Shown here one piece after another: positions 33,694 through 41,142 of a DNA stretch of 64,000 nucleotides (position 1 is its first letter; each line of letters begins with the position of its first letter). Where the stretch lies: assembly GCA_945881945.1 (NCBI GenBank), contig CAMCVO010000003.1, positions 1 to 64,000 on the forward strand, read 5' to 3'. The position numbers and the translations under genes were made by a program. Below the pieces are notes generated by a model. The model searched no databases. It saw nothing but the letters and a program-made list of their open reading frames with translations, and was not told the DNA's origin. This stretch comes from Bifidobacterium breve. Lineage in GTDB: Bacteria > Actinomycetota > Actinomycetes > Nanopelagicales > Nanopelagicaceae.

Positions 33694-35336
33694 GTGATGG
33701 CCCTTTAATTGTTCAAAGCGATAAAACACTTTTATTAGATATCGACCACATTCTCTCTGATGAATGTCGAAGATCAATTGCATCCTTTGCTGAGTTAGAA
33801 AAATCTCCAGAGCACATCCATACCTATCGATTAACTCCTCTTGGCTTATGGAATGCCAGAGCATCTGGTCATGATGCTGAAGAGGTTATTGATATTTTAA
33901 TTAAGTACTCACGCTATGCAGTCCCACATGCTTTGTTGGTTGATATTGCTGAAACCATGTCTCGGTATGGACGTTTGCGACTTGAAGCCCACCCAGTCCA
34001 CGGCCTGATCTTGGTTTCAAATGATGCTGCGGTTTTAAAAGAGGTCACTCGCGGTAAAAAAGTTGCTCCAATGCTAGGTAAGCAATTAGATGATGAAACT
34101 ATTGTTGTTCATCCAGGTCAGCGAGGATTCTTAAAGCAAGCACTATTGAAATTAGGTTGGCCGGCTGAGGATTTTGCTGGATATGTTGATGGCGAGCACC
34201 ATGAGATTTCATTACGCCAAGATGGTTGGAAAATTCGAAAGTACCAGGAGTTAGCCGCAGAAGGTTTTTGGCATGGTGGTTCAGGTGTTGTCGTACTTCC
34301 TTGTGGAGCAGGAAAAACTATTGTTGGAGCAGCTGCAATGGCACACGCAAAGGCGACAACATTAATTTTAGTAACCAATACTGTTGCCGCAAGACAGTGG
34401 CGCGAGGAGTTGCTGCGCAGAACTGACTTAAATGAAGATGATATTGGTGAGTACAGCGGAGCAAAAAAAGAGATACGACCAATAACAATTGCTACCTACC
34501 AAGTTATGACTACCCGTAAAAAAGGTGTCTATGCACACCTTGATCTTTTTGATGCAATTGATTGGGGATTAATTATTTATGATGAGGTGCACCTATTACC
34601 TGCACCGATCTTTAGATTTACCGCAGATATTCAATCCCGGCGCAGGCTTGGATTAACCGCCACCTTGGTTAGAGAAGATGGTATGGAGGGTGAAGTTTTC
34701 TCCCTTATTGGACCAAAGAGGTTTGATGTTCCGTGGAAAGAGATTGAAGCACAAGGTTATATTGCACCGGCAGATTGCGTTGAGGTAAGAATTACTCTAA
34801 CTGATGCTGAGCGTTTAAATTATGCAACTGCTGAGCAGGAAGATCGTTATCGTTTTTGTTCAACCTCACAAACCAAAAAAGATGTTGCAGTTGCACTAGC
34901 AAAGCAACATGCAAATGATCAGGTGTTAGTAATCGGTCAGTACATTGATCAGTTAGACCAACTATCTGAGGCATTATCTGTACCAGTTATAAAAGGTGAC
35001 ACACCTATTAAAGAGCGAGAGCGGCTTTATGCTTTATTCCGAACTGGTGAAATCAAATGTTTAGTTGTTTCTAAAGTAGCTAACTTTTCAATTGATTTAC
35101 CTGAGGCAACAATTGCTATTCAAGTTTCTGGAACATTTGGATCAAGGCAAGAAGAGGCTCAACGACTGGGTCGAATATTGCGACCTAAAGCAGATGGTAG
35201 AGGCGCTCGGTTTTATTCACTAGTTGCACGCGACACAATTGACCAAGATTTTGCTCAAAACCGTCAACGATTCTTAGCTGAGCAGGGATATGCCTATCGG
35301 ATTATTGATGCCGATGAGATTATAAAAAAGAATTAA
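33690..35336 (+). CDS. XPB-type DNA repair helicase
   Basis: A 548-residue superfamily 2 helicase. The N-terminal domain (to about 170) matches XPB. Walker A is CGAGKT at 205-210, the Walker B box is DEVH at 298-301, GLTATLVREDG follows, and motif VI is QEEAQRLGRILRP near 497. Bacterial XPB homologues unwind DNA 3' to 5' and are linked to repair. It overlaps the M20 peptidase gene by ATGA and the convergent glutaredoxin by 4 bases. Confidence 0.94.
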   Translation: MSDGPLIVQSDKTLLLDIDHILSDECRRSIASFAELEKSPEHIHTYRLTPLGLWNARASGHDAEEVIDILIKYSRYAVPHALLVDIAETMSRYGRLRLEAHPVHGLILVSNDAAVLKEVTRGKKVAPMLGKQLDDETIVVHPGQRGFLKQALLKLGWPAEDFAGYVDGEHHEISLRQDGWKIRKYQELAAEGFWHGGSGVVVLPCGAGKTIVGAAAMAHAKATTLILVTNTVAARQWREELLRRTDLNEDDIGEYSGAKKEIRPITIATYQVMTTRKKGVYAHLDLFDAIDWGLIIYDEVHLLPAPIFRFTADIQSRRRLGLTATLVREDGMEGEVFSLIGPKRFDVPWKEIEAQGYIAPADCVEVRITLTDAERLNYATAEQEDRYRFCSTSQTKKDVAVALAKQHANDQVLVIGQYIDQLDQLSEALSVPVIKGDTPIKERERLYALFRTGEIKCLVVSKVANFSIDLPEATIAIQVSGTFGSRQEEAQRLGRILRPKADGRGARFYSLVARDTIDQDFAQNRQRFLAEQGYAYRIIDADEIIKKN

Positions 35337-35569
35337 CTATTAATTGCTTTAGTAAATCTAATTAAATCAACTCGCCAATAGTCATGAACCTTTTCATCAA
35401 TTAGAATCACAGGCACTTGTTCGCCGTACTCTTTTTGTAACTCACTATCATTATCAATCAATTTAATCTCTAAACTAAAATTATCACTTCCTTTTACAGA
35501 ATTGATTAGATCGATAGCTATTTCACATAAGTGGCAACCCGTTCGGGAGTAAACAGTTACTTTTTTCAT
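35333..35569 (-). CDS. Glutaredoxin-like protein
   Basis: A 78-residue thioredoxin-fold protein with the redox motif TGCHLCE (Cys12, Cys15) and a conserved Pro in QVPVILIDEK. It belongs to the short glutaredoxin-like (DUF836) family. The substrate is unknown. A 31-codon open frame ends 4 bases into its start (ATGA), see separate entry. Its end overlaps the XPB gene. Confidence 0.9.
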   Translation of the reverse strand: MKKVTVYSRTGCHLCEIAIDLINSVKGSDNFSLEIKLIDNDSELQKEYGEQVPVILIDEKVHDYWRVDLIRFTKAINS

Positions 35570-35695: not shown

Positions 35696-38044
35696 ATGCG
35701 CTTGAAATCGATGATCACCTCGGTATTAGTATTTGCCTCTTTTTTAGTTGCTCCGATCTCAAACTCATCCGCATTAGAAATTAAAGTAGCACCCGCTAAC
35801 TGGGGTTACATCTATGCCAGTGGTAATTCTGTGTCTGTACAGGCCAACCCTAGATTACCGTCAGCGAACTTAGAGAAGAAGAGTAGTTTTCTTGTCAACT
35901 TTAATACTGTGCCCTCGATTGCTAGATCTGCAGTTCAAGCTGCGGTTGATATCTGGTCAGAAAACTTTGCTTCTACTGTGCCAATAAATGTAAATGTAAA
36001 GTGGGGTAGCTCATCAAGTTATGGAGTTCTGGCATCAGCAAGTGCTAAAAGTAATTTTGCAAATTTTAATGGTGCACCCGATAGCACTCTTTACTACCCA
36101 TCTGCACTAGCAAATGCTCTTGCTGGAAAAGATTTAGACCCGACTTCGCCGGAGATGGAAATAACAATAGCTTCAAATGCTCCTTGGTATTTTGGGGTAG
36201 ATGGTAAATGTCCAGCTCGAAGCTATGACCTAGTTTCCGTAATTTTGCATGAAATGGGACATGGCCTGGGTTTTATCTCTGGTAGTTATTACGATGCTTT
36301 TTCTGGGTTTGGCAGAGTTGATCAACCAACACCATTTGATGCTTACGCACAACTTCCAGATGGAAAACGCTTATCTGATATGGCTTCACCTTCACTTGAA
36401 ACAGGCAAAGCCATGACCTCTGATTTAGTTTGGTCTGGTGAATTTGCTATTAAGGCTAACAATGGAATTAAGCCAAAACTTTACACTCCAACTACATATG
36501 AGGCAGGATCTTCGATTAGCCATCTTGATGAAGCGACTTTTTCTCAAGCTGGTGAAAACGCAGCTATGACTCCTAACTTAGATTCTGGCGAGGTATTTCA
36601 CTTACCAGGCGCGTTAGTGCTGGCAATGTTTGAAGACATGCGTCAAAAACCACCGGCTGGAATTGCTACTGGGACTCCCCAATCGCCACAAAATGTTAAG
36701 GCTTTAATTGGTGATAAAAGTGCAATTGTATTATTTGATTCGCCAGTGAATTTTAGGTCAGCACAAGTTTCAAGATATGATGTTAAGAATATTCAGACTG
36801 GGAATGTAGTTAGTGTTACTGAAAGCCCTGTGGTTATTTCTGGACTAAAAAACGGTACCAAGTACACATTTTCTGTCTCTGCTACGAACTCATTAGGAAC
36901 CTCTAATTCGGTAGATACTAATTCAGTCACGCCGCAAACTTCCTGGAAGAGCTCGGTAGTTGATGCAGCCGCAGATGCCAAATACCTAGCTACCGCCACC
37001 TATGCTGGTAAACCAGTTATTGCTTATAGTGATAGTAAAAAAGGTGATTTGAAACTTGCCACTTTTAATGGAAATAAGTGGGGGCTTAAAACTATTGATG
37101 GGAACTCCACAACTCTTGGAAAAACTAGCAATGATGTCTCCGGTTATATTTCTATGTGTACGTCGATAAGTGGTAGAACTAATTATTTGCATATATTTTA
37201 TGCTGATCTTAAGGATAAAGATCTTCGGCATGCCGTCTATGACGGTAAAAACTGGTCTTACGAAATAGTTGATGGGGATGGCGTAGCAATTCAAGATTAC
37301 AAAGAGTTTCCAAGAAAACGTGGTGGTTCTGATGTAAGCGTCTCTATTGCTTGTGCTGTGACTGCATCAGGGGTCCAAGTATTTTACCGAGATGAATCTC
37401 AAGGAATTTTGTTAGGTGCAGTAAAGGATGATCTTGATTGGCGTTATGAGATTGTTGATGGGGATAAAGACACTGAAGATCGAACAACTGGTGATGTTGC
37501 CTTCCATTTAAAAGCAACAACTGTTGGAAAGAAAATTCATTTGATATACGACTCTGTCCGCGGTTTCGACATGGATAGAAATGTCACTAGAAGTGAAATC
37601 AGGTATGCAACCAGAAGTAGTGGGGCTGTCGAAGATTGGACTTACAAAACCTTAGATGTACCCAGCAATGGTGTTTCAGTTGCTGGTTATGATGTTGCAA
37701 TTTTTAATGGTGCTAAAGGTATTAATACTGGTTGGTTGACTGGAACTGGTGCATCATTTCCAAACCCAAACCAAGTTAGATACCAATTACTTGGTGCTAC
37801 CTTGTTTACAGATGCCACATCTGTTAATTATGGTGTACCAAACTCTCCAATCGCTATGGATGATAAAACGATTATGTTTGGTTGTCAGCTTAGATTGTGT
37901 GCATTAAATAGAACTAATCGATCAGTTACGCTGCTATCAAATAGTACAGTTGAAGATGGATCGTTAAGTAGCTGGATTACCTTGAATAAAACTAGATACG
38001 CCGTTGCCGGCGTATCTGGAAAATTAACTCTGTTTAAACCCTAG
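35696..38044 (+). CDS. Secreted metzincin-like metalloprotease with FN3 and repeat domains
   Basis: A 782-residue exported protein. A signal peptide spans about residues 1-26. The protease-like domain contains HEMGHGLGF with His185, Glu186 and His189; the residue at the usual third-ligand position is Ser195, not His or Asp. A fibronectin type III domain covers about 330-410. The C-terminal 370 residues show at least three related blades ending KWGLKTIDG, NWSYEIVDG and DWRYEIVDG, suggesting a beta-propeller. It probably acts outside the cell on proteins. The gene ends in a weak terminator hairpin. Confidence 0.82.
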   Translation: MRLKSMITSVLVFASFLVAPISNSSALEIKVAPANWGYIYASGNSVSVQANPRLPSANLEKKSSFLVNFNTVPSIARSAVQAAVDIWSENFASTVPINVNVKWGSSSSYGVLASASAKSNFANFNGAPDSTLYYPSALANALAGKDLDPTSPEMEITIASNAPWYFGVDGKCPARSYDLVSVILHEMGHGLGFISGSYYDAFSGFGRVDQPTPFDAYAQLPDGKRLSDMASPSLETGKAMTSDLVWSGEFAIKANNGIKPKLYTPTTYEAGSSISHLDEATFSQAGENAAMTPNLDSGEVFHLPGALVLAMFEDMRQKPPAGIATGTPQSPQNVKALIGDKSAIVLFDSPVNFRSAQVSRYDVKNIQTGNVVSVTESPVVISGLKNGTKYTFSVSATNSLGTSNSVDTNSVTPQTSWKSSVVDAAADAKYLATATYAGKPVIAYSDSKKGDLKLATFNGNKWGLKTIDGNSTTLGKTSNDVSGYISMCTSISGRTNYLHIFYADLKDKDLRHAVYDGKNWSYEIVDGDGVAIQDYKEFPRKRGGSDVSVSIACAVTASGVQVFYRDESQGILLGAVKDDLDWRYEIVDGDKDTEDRTTGDVAFHLKATTVGKKIHLIYDSVRGFDMDRNVTRSEIRYATRSSGAVEDWTYKTLDVPSNGVSVAGYDVAIFNGAKGINTGWLTGTGASFPNPNQVRYQLLGATLFTDATSVNYGVPNSPIAMDDKTIMFGCQLRLCALNRTNRSVTLLSNSTVEDGSLSSWITLNKTRYAVAGVSGKLTLFKP

Positions 38045-38192: not shown

Positions 38193-39416
38193 CTAGTTAA
38201 CTACTACTAAACCAAAACTCACACCCGAATCAGTGATTACTACAGTTCCAATTTCATTGTTTGATGCGATTGCAACTGCTGGGGCGGAGAGTGTGTGAGC
38301 GGAGATAACTTCACCCTTCTTACCCAATTCAAGGAGCACTGATGAAGCTGTCTTAGGTTTCCACGCAGGTACACCTTTAATCGCACCTGATGAGACAAAT
38401 GTCGCCCAAGTATTCTTGCTTACACTCGCCAAAGCAGATGATCTAGATGGGTACCTGGTATTCCAAACTGGCTTATTAAGAGCAGAAAATTTGGTTACTG
38501 CTGCTTCTTGTTTATTTGAATATAGAACCTGACCTGCCTGCAGCAAACCAGCATCAATTGAATTCCAACTTCTAGTTGTATTTTTAAGAGTAGCTCGGGC
38601 AACTTGCTGCAACACACCTAAGCTAGAAATTCTTATAGTCAATGCGTCCAATTTACTTATTGGTTTAACTTTTAACAATGACTCTCCGCTTGCACCAACT
38701 GCGGTTAGGCTGCCATCGGCATTCAAAATTGCATCATTTATTTGGGTACTTTTTGATCCGATTTTAATTATTGGAGAAAATACACCAGTTTTGGTGGTTG
38801 ATAAATAGAAGCCTGATGTTGCTGACTTCTCGTATAAGTTGCCAACAATTATTAAATTACTAGCTGATATCAGTATTTTTCTAGGAGTAATTATGTTTTG
38901 TGAAACATACTCATATGAATTCAATAAATTACCAGTACTGCCTACCTGCCAGAGCTTAATTCGGTTGAGTGGAGTTATGGCAGGTTGAGTAGGGTCAATC
39001 ACCACATTATCTGGGTTTAAAACTCTTGTCGGAGATGGTGTTGGAGTTGGCACTATTTGTGATGAGCTTGCACCAACTACCCAAATACTTCCATCTGCAT
39101 CAATTGCAGCATTTGTGGCAATTTCATCAGTTAATCCAGGTAATCTTAAATTCCACATTGGCGCACCAATTGATGAGTAGCTGGTGATAAATCCATCACT
39201 TAAACCGGTAATCGTGCCGCCAAGCCAAGGTGAAGTTGCAGATTCAGTTGTACCTACCAGAACGATACTTACTGGGGTAAGTAATACATCACTTATCTGA
39301 TCAGACTTAGTGTAGTTCAATTCAACTAAGGATTTTGTAATCTTCATCGATGCAGCATTAGCTGGTGCCAAGGGAATTAATACAGCAGCAAAAATTAGAC
39401 TTAAGATTTTTTTCAA
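38193..39416 (-). CDS. Secreted repeat protein of unknown function
   Basis: A 407-residue exported protein. Residues 1-21 form a signal peptide ending ANAA. The mature part is rich in Ser, Thr, Ile and Val, and has repeated short strands of the type DGSIWVVGAS, DGSLTAVGAS and ASNLIIVGNL, which suggest a beta-propeller or quinoprotein-like fold. A Pro/Thr linker (PTPTPSPTR) occurs near 127. No enzyme motif is visible. It overlaps proC by 4 bases, which is odd for an extracellular protein and probably reflects compaction. Confidence 0.72.
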   Translation of the reverse strand: MKKILSLIFAAVLIPLAPANAASMKITKSLVELNYTKSDQISDVLLTPVSIVLVGTTESATSPWLGGTITGLSDGFITSYSSIGAPMWNLRLPGLTDEIATNAAIDADGSIWVVGASSSQIVPTPTPSPTRVLNPDNVVIDPTQPAITPLNRIKLWQVGSTGNLLNSYEYVSQNIITPRKILISASNLIIVGNLYEKSATSGFYLSTTKTGVFSPIIKIGSKSTQINDAILNADGSLTAVGASGESLLKVKPISKLDALTIRISSLGVLQQVARATLKNTTRSWNSIDAGLLQAGQVLYSNKQEAAVTKFSALNKPVWNTRYPSRSSALASVSKNTWATFVSSGAIKGVPAWKPKTASSVLLELGKKGEVISAHTLSAPAVAIASNNEIGTVVITDSGVSFGLVVVN

Positions 39417-40281: not shown

Positions 40282-41142
40282 ATGGCGAGTAAAAGCAGAG
40301 ACAAATCCAAGCTATCAAAGAATGAGGTTGCTGCTAATTTTGTGCGGGATTGGGTTGAGTTTGAAAACCCAGCAAATCCTGAGGAAATATTCAAGTGTGA
40401 TTTAACCTGGCTAACATCGTATTGGCAATGTATTTACGGAAATGGTTGTTGTGGCATTGATGCTGACAAACCAGATGCTGGCTGCTGTTCAGATGGGGCT
40501 TACTACACTGGGAAAGAGGATGAAAAAAGAGTTTTTGAAGCGGCCAAGAAACTAACTAGAGCTGATTGGCAATTTTATGATCAAGCTAGACCAAAAAAAG
40601 TTGGTGGTAAATTACAAATTACTGAGATTGGATTAGATAAGGATCGCAAGACTAAAAAAATTAAAGACTCTTGCATATTTTTAAATCGGGTTGGTTATGA
40701 AGCGCCTGGATATACCGGATCCTTTGGTTGCGCACTCCACCATTTGGCTCTTAAAGAGCAGGTGCATTTTGTTGATACCAAACCAGATATTTGTTGGCAA
40801 TTACCTATTCGCAGATCTTGGGAGACTCGTGAATATGGAGATGAAGAAATTACTGTTGTGGTAATTGGTGAGTACACCAGAACTGCCTGGGGTGAAGGAG
40901 GTGCTGATTTTGATTGGTACTGCACCAGTAACTCTGAGGCCCATGTGGGAAGAGTTCCGGTATATAAATCAAGTGAGGTTGAGTTAACCAAAATGATGGG
41001 TCGAAAAGGGTACGCCGAACTAGTTAAATTATGTGACAGTCGAATGGCTGCGATATCCGCCACCCGTAAGGCACAAAAAAAGCGTGAACTTCCACTCTTT
41101 GTGATTCACCCTGCCACAAAAGCTGTGCAAGAAGGACGATAG
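40282..41142 (+). CDS. Cysteine-rich conserved protein of unknown function
   Basis: A 286-residue soluble protein. I do not recognise a family with confidence. Cysteines cluster early: FKCDLTW, then WQCIYGNGCCGID and AGCCSDG within about 35 residues. More follow at DSCIFLN, FGCALHH, DICWQL and WYCTSN. The arrangement suggests an iron-sulfur or zinc site. Charged N- and C-terminal tails flank the core, and there is no signal peptide or membrane helix. It precedes radA by 26 bases on the same strand, though radA has its own promoter-like box. Confidence 0.75.
   Translation: MASKSRDKSKLSKNEVAANFVRDWVEFENPANPEEIFKCDLTWLTSYWQCIYGNGCCGIDADKPDAGCCSDGAYYTGKEDEKRVFEAAKKLTRADWQFYDQARPKKVGGKLQITEIGLDKDRKTKKIKDSCIFLNRVGYEAPGYTGSFGCALHHLALKEQVHFVDTKPDICWQLPIRRSWETREYGDEEITVVVIGEYTRTAWGEGGADFDWYCTSNSEAHVGRVPVYKSSEVELTKMMGRKGYAELVKLCDSRMAAISATRKAQKKRELPLFVIHPATKAVQEGR

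What the first reader, a model, noticed from the sequence alone, without database searches (positions are those of the whole stretch)
35696..38044. Secreted metalloprotease with a missing third zinc ligand and propeller-like repeats
The motif HEMGHGLGFIS keeps HExxHxxG but has Ser195 where metzincins have His or Asp. The zinc site must use another ligand or the enzyme is altered. An FN3 domain and at least three repeats ending (N/D)W(S/R)YEIVDG-like follow. The combination in a free-living streamlined bacterium suggests an adhesive or substrate-targeted exoenzyme.
Basis: partly seen in the sequence, partly recalled or inferred. Interest (0 to 1): 0.55.

Follow-up and report, generated by a model that had tools for sequence, protein, structure and literature searches.

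The report
Bacterial leishmanolysin-type protease with propeller
An abundant group of tiny lake bacteria carries a secreted zinc protease whose seemingly missing third metal ligand is most likely a histidine further along the chain, as in the Leishmania surface protease, joined to a seven-bladed propeller that probably holds it on a target.

Summary
The third ligand is displaced, not missing. His276, in SHLDE, lies 83 residues after Gly192 and is followed by a Met-turn-like Met291. H185, H189 and H276 are the only invariant histidines in 69 of 69 aligned homologs. Remote homologs with Ser/Gly/Thr at 195 all keep His276, while three with the classical His/Asp at 195 lack it. AlphaFold (pLDDT 93.7) plus structural alignment puts leishmanolysin (1lml) first, Z 14.1, ahead of MMPs at about 10. 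Leishmanolysin has the same displaced-ligand layout, with a 62-residue insertion in print. By sequence it falls in NCBIfam NF038122 (metallo_LGF), E 2e-15 but below the curated cut-off; Pfam M8 does not match. The repeats are a complete seven-bladed beta-propeller (415-782), one face of which is more conserved. The gene is core, present in 112 of 113 well-sequenced genomes of its family, with fixed neighbours. Most likely it is an active, surface-directed protease; substrate and propeller ligand are unknown. The anomaly is explained; what remains of interest is the universality in streamlined genomes.

The parts
35696..38044 (+). whole gene, 782 aa secreted metalloprotease with FN3 and beta-propeller
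   Evidence: homologs
35696..35773 (+). signal peptide, residues 1-26 (S-S-A before L27), inferred by eye
   Evidence: sequence shows hydrophobic stretch and small residues; AF2 helix 3-17 of low confidence
35774..35884 (+). variable linker or propeptide-like stretch, residues 27-63; holds no Cys, so no cysteine switch
   Evidence: mean identity to P0001 0.37 against 0.61 for the catalytic domain
35885..36646 (+). metzincin catalytic domain, residues 64-317
   Evidence: NF038122 match; AF2 pLDDT 93.7 and 1lml Z 14.1
36248..36280 (+). HEMGHGLGFIS, residues 185-195: two zinc His, general-base Glu186, Gly192, Ser195 in the usual third-ligand place
   Evidence: H185, E186, H189 in 69 of 69; S195 68 S, 1 T
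36281..36520 (+). insertion, residues 196-275, between glycine turn and third His
   Evidence: as conserved as the domain as a whole or more (0.77 vs 0.73)
36521..36523 (+). His276, proposed third zinc ligand (SHLDE)
   Evidence: 69 of 69, 20 of 20 in a second spread sample, 14 of 14 remote LGF-type homologs
36566..36568 (+). Met291, proposed Met-turn (AMTP)
   Evidence: 69 of 69; 19 of 20, one Leu
36683..36904 (+). fibronectin type III domain, residues 330-403
   Evidence: 16 of 16 members
36938..38041 (+). seven-bladed beta-propeller, residues 415-782, closed by strand 418-423 joining the last blade
   Evidence: conserved face
38193..39416 (-). convergent, fast-evolving secreted protein of unknown family, constant neighbour
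   Evidence: 69 of 69 loci with at least 1500 bases downstream; no Pfam or NCBIfam family over its cut-off

Best explanation
It is an exported, catalytically competent zinc endopeptidase of the metzincin fold with a leishmanolysin-type displaced third ligand. Zn is held by His185, His189 and His276, Glu186 is the general base, and Met291 forms the Met-turn under the metal. The 81-residue insertion between the glycine turn and His276 forms part of the cleft wall. A short FN3 spacer links the enzyme to a seven-bladed propeller whose one conserved loop face binds a surface ligand (glycan or protein), so cleavage is directed to a fixed target at or near the cell surface. Shown: sequence, conservation, fold match, synteny and universality. 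Inferred: zinc binding, activity, export, cleft wall, propeller ligand, substrate.
For: Only H185, H189 and H276 are invariant histidines across 69 of 69 homologs, with M291 69 of 69. In a second sample of 20 spread and divergent family members all three His and E186 are kept 20 of 20, M291 19 of 20. In 18 aligned rows incl. P0001, 15 with S/G/T at 195 all have His at 276 and Met at 291; 3 with His/Asp at 195 have Q/E/E at 276. AF2 of residues 61-325: pLDDT 93.7, pTM 0.92; VIA best match 1lml leishmanolysin Z 14.1, rmsd 2.8, 180 residues, 22% identity, next MMP-11 Z 10.4. NF038122 E 2.1e-15, 16 of 16 members. Propeller: Z 27.4 with lectin PLL3, 278 residues, rmsd 2.5; BC+DA loop face conservation 0.676 vs 0.536 for the other face, 0 of 10,000 permutations. 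Leishmanolysin has a 62-residue insertion between Gly and last His with unchanged site geometry (PMC5572447, passages).
Against: No coordinates were available to measure His-zinc distances. Foldseek by itself gave no significant catalytic-domain match (best E 0.55); leishmanolysin ranks first only in the VIA re-alignment. NF038122 score is under its curated cut-off (57.5 vs 80 bits) and Pfam M8 is not found. The propeller's Z is similar for lectins, WD40 proteins and hydrolases, so the fold does not name the ligand. The permutation test ignores neighbour correlation, and blade 4 goes the other way. One of 20 members has Leu at the Met-turn.
Confidence: 0.82

Rival explanations
1. The zinc site is degenerate and the protein is a pseudo-protease used only as a binding or structural surface protein.
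For: Ser at the classical third-ligand position; sequence scores below curated family cut-offs.
Against: Glu186 and three His are invariant in 69 of 69 and 20 of 20 homologs while the catalytic domain as a whole averages 61% identity to P0001; a decayed site would vary.
Confidence: 0.06
2. The third ligand is some other residue (for example invariant Asp215, Asp278 or Tyr268) or a water, and not His276.
For: D215, D278 and Y268 are also invariant.
Against: His276 plus a following Met reproduces the leishmanolysin order, and presence of His276 is mutually exclusive with a classical ligand at 195 in the 18 aligned rows; best structural match is leishmanolysin.
Confidence: 0.06
3. Same enzyme, but its role is nutritional: a general exoprotease making peptides for the cell's peptide transporters, the propeller being a lectin that sticks to algal or detrital glycoproteins.
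For: acI bacteria are predicted to use di- and oligopeptides and carry and express peptide transporters (PMC5574706, passages); propeller resembles PLL3 lectin; an M20 peptidase gene lies two genes upstream.
Against: Core status and fixed context fit a housekeeping role at least as well; no transporter is among the 10 neighbour genes compared.
Confidence: 0.4
4. Same enzyme, but its role is housekeeping: maturation or turnover of the cell's own surface proteins, perhaps including the convergent secreted neighbour at 38193-39416.
For: 112 of 113 well-sequenced family genomes carry it; neighbour conserved 69 of 69; secreted metzincins with binding modules can have a partner gene next door, as Mep72 with BamI (PMC4334185, passages).
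Against: No substrate known; the neighbour has no recognised family and is convergent, not co-operonic.
Confidence: 0.4

Closest known systems
Leishmanolysin (MEROPS M8, PDB 1lml)
   Same: metzincin fold over 180 aligned residues; order HExxHxxG, long insertion, distant third His, Met-turn
   Different: 22% identity; insertion longer by 19 to 21 residues depending on how it is counted; M8 has 19 conserved Cys (PMC11957388, passages) while P0001 64-317 has one (C172); FN3 and propeller follow; Pfam M8 not detected
NCBIfam NF038122 (metallo_LGF)
   Same: profile matched over two stretches, the better 130-300, E 2.1e-15; LGF motif
   Different: 57.5 bits, below the 80-bit cut-off
Mep72 of Pseudomonas aeruginosa (PMC4334185, passages)
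   Same: secreted metzincin with C-terminal binding domains and an adjacent partner gene
   Different: Mep72 has two carbohydrate-binding modules and an inhibitor BamI; no propeller; related there to adamalysins
PLL3 seven-bladed lectin of Photorhabdus (8q81, 6t96)
   Same: propeller fold, Z 27.4, rmsd 2.5
   Different: 14% identity; sugar sites not tested; WD40 and other propellers score within 1 to 3 Z

Membership tests
Metzincins (clan MA(M)) | HExxHxxG with general-base Glu | tested here: met
   185-192; H185, E186, H189, G192 invariant in 69 of 69
Metzincins (clan MA(M)) | third ligand His/Asp three residues after the Gly (classical spacing) | tested here: not met
   Ser195; 68 S and 1 T of 69. 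Leishmanolysins, accepted metzincins, also depart from this spacing (PMC5572447)
Metzincins (clan MA(M)) | Met-turn | tested here: met
   Met291 69 of 69, by sequence position; geometry not measured
Leishmanolysin-type site | large insertion between Gly and third His (62 aa in Leishmania, PMC5572447) | tested here: met
   83 residues between G192 and H276, H276 invariant
Leishmanolysin family M8 | match to Pfam PF01457 Peptidase_M8 | tested here: not met
   no match in the window's genome at E up to 10, none in hmmscan
Leishmanolysin family M8 | fold of 1lml | tested here: met
   Z 14.1, rmsd 2.8, 180 aligned, rank 1 by 3.7 Z; Foldseek alone not significant
NCBIfam NF038122 metallo_LGF | score over curated cut-off of 80 bits | tested here: not met
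   57.5 bits; 0 of 296 class genomes over it
PLL-type propeller lectins | seven-bladed propeller | tested here: met
PLL-type propeller lectins | sugar binding | not testable with these tools
   needs a glycan array or similar

The most novel reading that the evidence does not exclude
A leishmanolysin-type surface protease is part of the irreducible core of the most streamlined freshwater actinobacteria, where a lineage-specific propeller aims it at one conserved self or partner molecule, making it a near-essential envelope-processing or cell-contact enzyme rather than a general exoenzyme.
Probability: 0.3. Interest if true: 0.55.

Novelty: new variant of a known kind. Interest (0 to 1): 0.36.

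Why it matters
It removes an apparent anomaly: the zinc site is most likely intact, with its third ligand displaced. It also points to a concrete family: bacterial enzymes with a Leishmania-surface-protease-like active site occur in several actinobacterial families, and one is fixed in genomes of about 1.1 to 2.2 Mb. That makes a testable lead on how these abundant lake bacteria handle extracellular protein or their own surface.

Tried and rejected
Direct sequence search of the PDB with the protein, the full profile and the catalytic profile found FN3 domains but no metalloprotease of note; the catalytic profile gave only a lectin at E 0.6 and MMP-20 at E 1.2. Pfam gave Peptidase_M10 only at E 0.075, below cut-off, and in 11 of 16 members at best E 0.0037. 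Foldseek on the catalytic model gave nothing significant; astacin was second at E 0.77. A viral-contig scan found 40 pattern stretches, none a relative. DNA tandem repeats: none relevant. The propeller profile hits 16 of 197 class genomes, all 16 in the window's family. Promoter and terminator scan: no more sites than in shuffles. Literature: no paper in the held library with metallo_LGF or NF038122, with any of six phrases for bacterial leishmanolysin, with Nanopelagicales, peptidase and secreted together, or with acI Actinobacteria and metalloprotease; the listings showed nothing on this protein as far as titles and abstract starts tell.

Full report
Observation. The open reading frame at 35696-38044 on the + strand encodes 782 residues. 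It starts with a hydrophobic export-signal-like stretch, carries HEMGHGLGFIS at 185-195 and an FN3 domain at 330-403 (Pfam 28.7 bits against a cut-off of 25), then a repeat region. Pfam offers no peptidase family over its cut-off. NCBIfam NF038122, metallo_LGF, matches at E 2.1e-15 but 57.5 bits is below its 80-bit cut-off; all 16 of 16 members of a first alignment match that model.

The third ligand. Classical metzincins have the third ligand three residues after the glycine, here Ser195. In 69 aligned homologs (P0001 plus 68 of the 80 loci) the only invariant histidines in the whole protein are 185, 189 and 276; Glu186 and Met291 are also invariant, and 195 is Ser in 68 and Thr in 1. A separate sample of 20 family members, including the most divergent ones, keeps H185, E186, H189, S195 and H276 in 20 of 20 and M291 in 19 of 20, the other being Leu. 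Remote homologs from other actinobacteria give an independent test (rows are the non-family loci with duplicates removed, plus L154 and L155). Of 18 rows including P0001, the 15 with Ser, Gly or Thr at 195 all have His at the 276 position and Met at the 291 position. The 3 rows with His or Asp at 195 (L146, L148, L147) have Q, E and E at 276. The alignment of those 3 short proteins past the motif is loose, so the exclusion is suggestive rather than strict.

Structure. AlphaFold2 on residues 61-325 with 69 sequences gives pLDDT 93.7 and pTM 0.92. In the VIA re-alignment the top match is leishmanolysin, 1lml, Z 14.1, rmsd 2.8, 180 residues, 22% identity, model 1-257 against chain 107-367; the next are MMP-11 at 10.4 and karilysin at 9.9. 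Foldseek alone gave nothing significant. [quoted passage not shown] In P0001, 83 residues lie between Gly192 and His276. I take His276 as the third ligand with about 0.9 confidence.

The repeats. The full-length model (pLDDT 87.4) shows seven blades, as I read its strand list: 431-468, 485-526, 551-590, 601-654, 660-707, 715-748 and 758-781, the last completed by strand 418-423. VIA gives Z 27.4 with PLL3, a Photorhabdus lectin, over 278 residues at 14% identity, but WD40 and other propellers are within 1 to 3 Z, so lectin function is only a lead. Loops on the BC/DA face are more conserved than those on the AB/CD face (0.676, n 163, against 0.536, n 96; 0 of 10,000 permutations). The difference is largest in blades 2, 3 and 5, reversed in blade 4 (0.52 against 0.59) and nil in blades 6 and 7 (0.51 against 0.49, 0.68 against 0.67). 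Neighbouring columns are not independent, so the permutation value is optimistic.

Distribution. The catalytic profile hits 112 of 113 family genomes searched with a completeness floor of 90% (the window's own genome, 86%, included; G343 has none, G340 only a fragment). The whole-protein profile hits 113 of 113, but G343 only at E 6.6e-4, and G336, G340 and G344 only in part; G334 shows two copies on two contigs. In the closest set, 23 of 24 same-genus and 12 of 12 other-genus family genomes match. Outside the family, the catalytic domain occurs with other C-termini: FN3 repeats in L113 and L118, an FN3-like and other C-terminal region in L154 and what looks to me like DUF4214 repeats in L155 (name recalled). 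The propeller profile was found only in the family, 16 of 197 class genomes. Record titles name Candidatus Nanopelagicaceae and Nanopelagicus; that these are the acI bacteria of the literature is recalled. Some titles (Bifidobacterium breve, Bacteroidetes) look like mislabelled metagenome bins.

Context. Of 66 loci with at least 1500 bases upstream, 65 have the XPB helicase there. Of 69 with at least 1500 bases downstream, 69 have the convergent secreted protein and 69 have ProC (80 loci examined). Export plus strict retention suggests an important extracellular role. acI bacteria are predicted to use di- and oligopeptides and to express their transporters (PMC5574706, passages), which fits a feeding role; fixed core status fits a housekeeping role. 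The evidence does not decide between the two.

Verdict. The anomaly is explained: a leishmanolysin-like metzincin with a displaced third His. By Pfam it is not an M8 member, and by NCBIfam it is a sub-threshold relative of metallo_LGF. The enzyme-FN3-propeller architecture is a family-specific variant in what was searched. Interest is moderate because of universality in streamlined genomes, not because of a novel zinc site.

Noticed in passing
window 35336-35569, - strand: Small glutaredoxin-like ORF, 77 aa with a CHLC motif, between the XPB helicase and the metalloprotease; family named by eye only.
   Followed up: partly
window 38193-39416, - strand: Secreted protein with no Pfam or NCBIfam family over cut-off, fast evolving (mostly 27-42% identity in the more distant loci) yet a constant convergent neighbour.
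   Followed up: partly
window 40282-41142, + strand: 286 aa protein without Pfam or NCBIfam match but conserved in the same neighbourhood.
   Followed up: no
L113, L118 (unnamed class genomes): Same catalytic domain in very large open frames (2108 and 2239 aa) with many FN3-like repeats.
   Followed up: no
window 36938-38041 (C488, C553, C730, C735 of P0001): Four invariant cysteines in the propeller (69 of 69), likely disulphides; pairing not tested.
   Followed up: no
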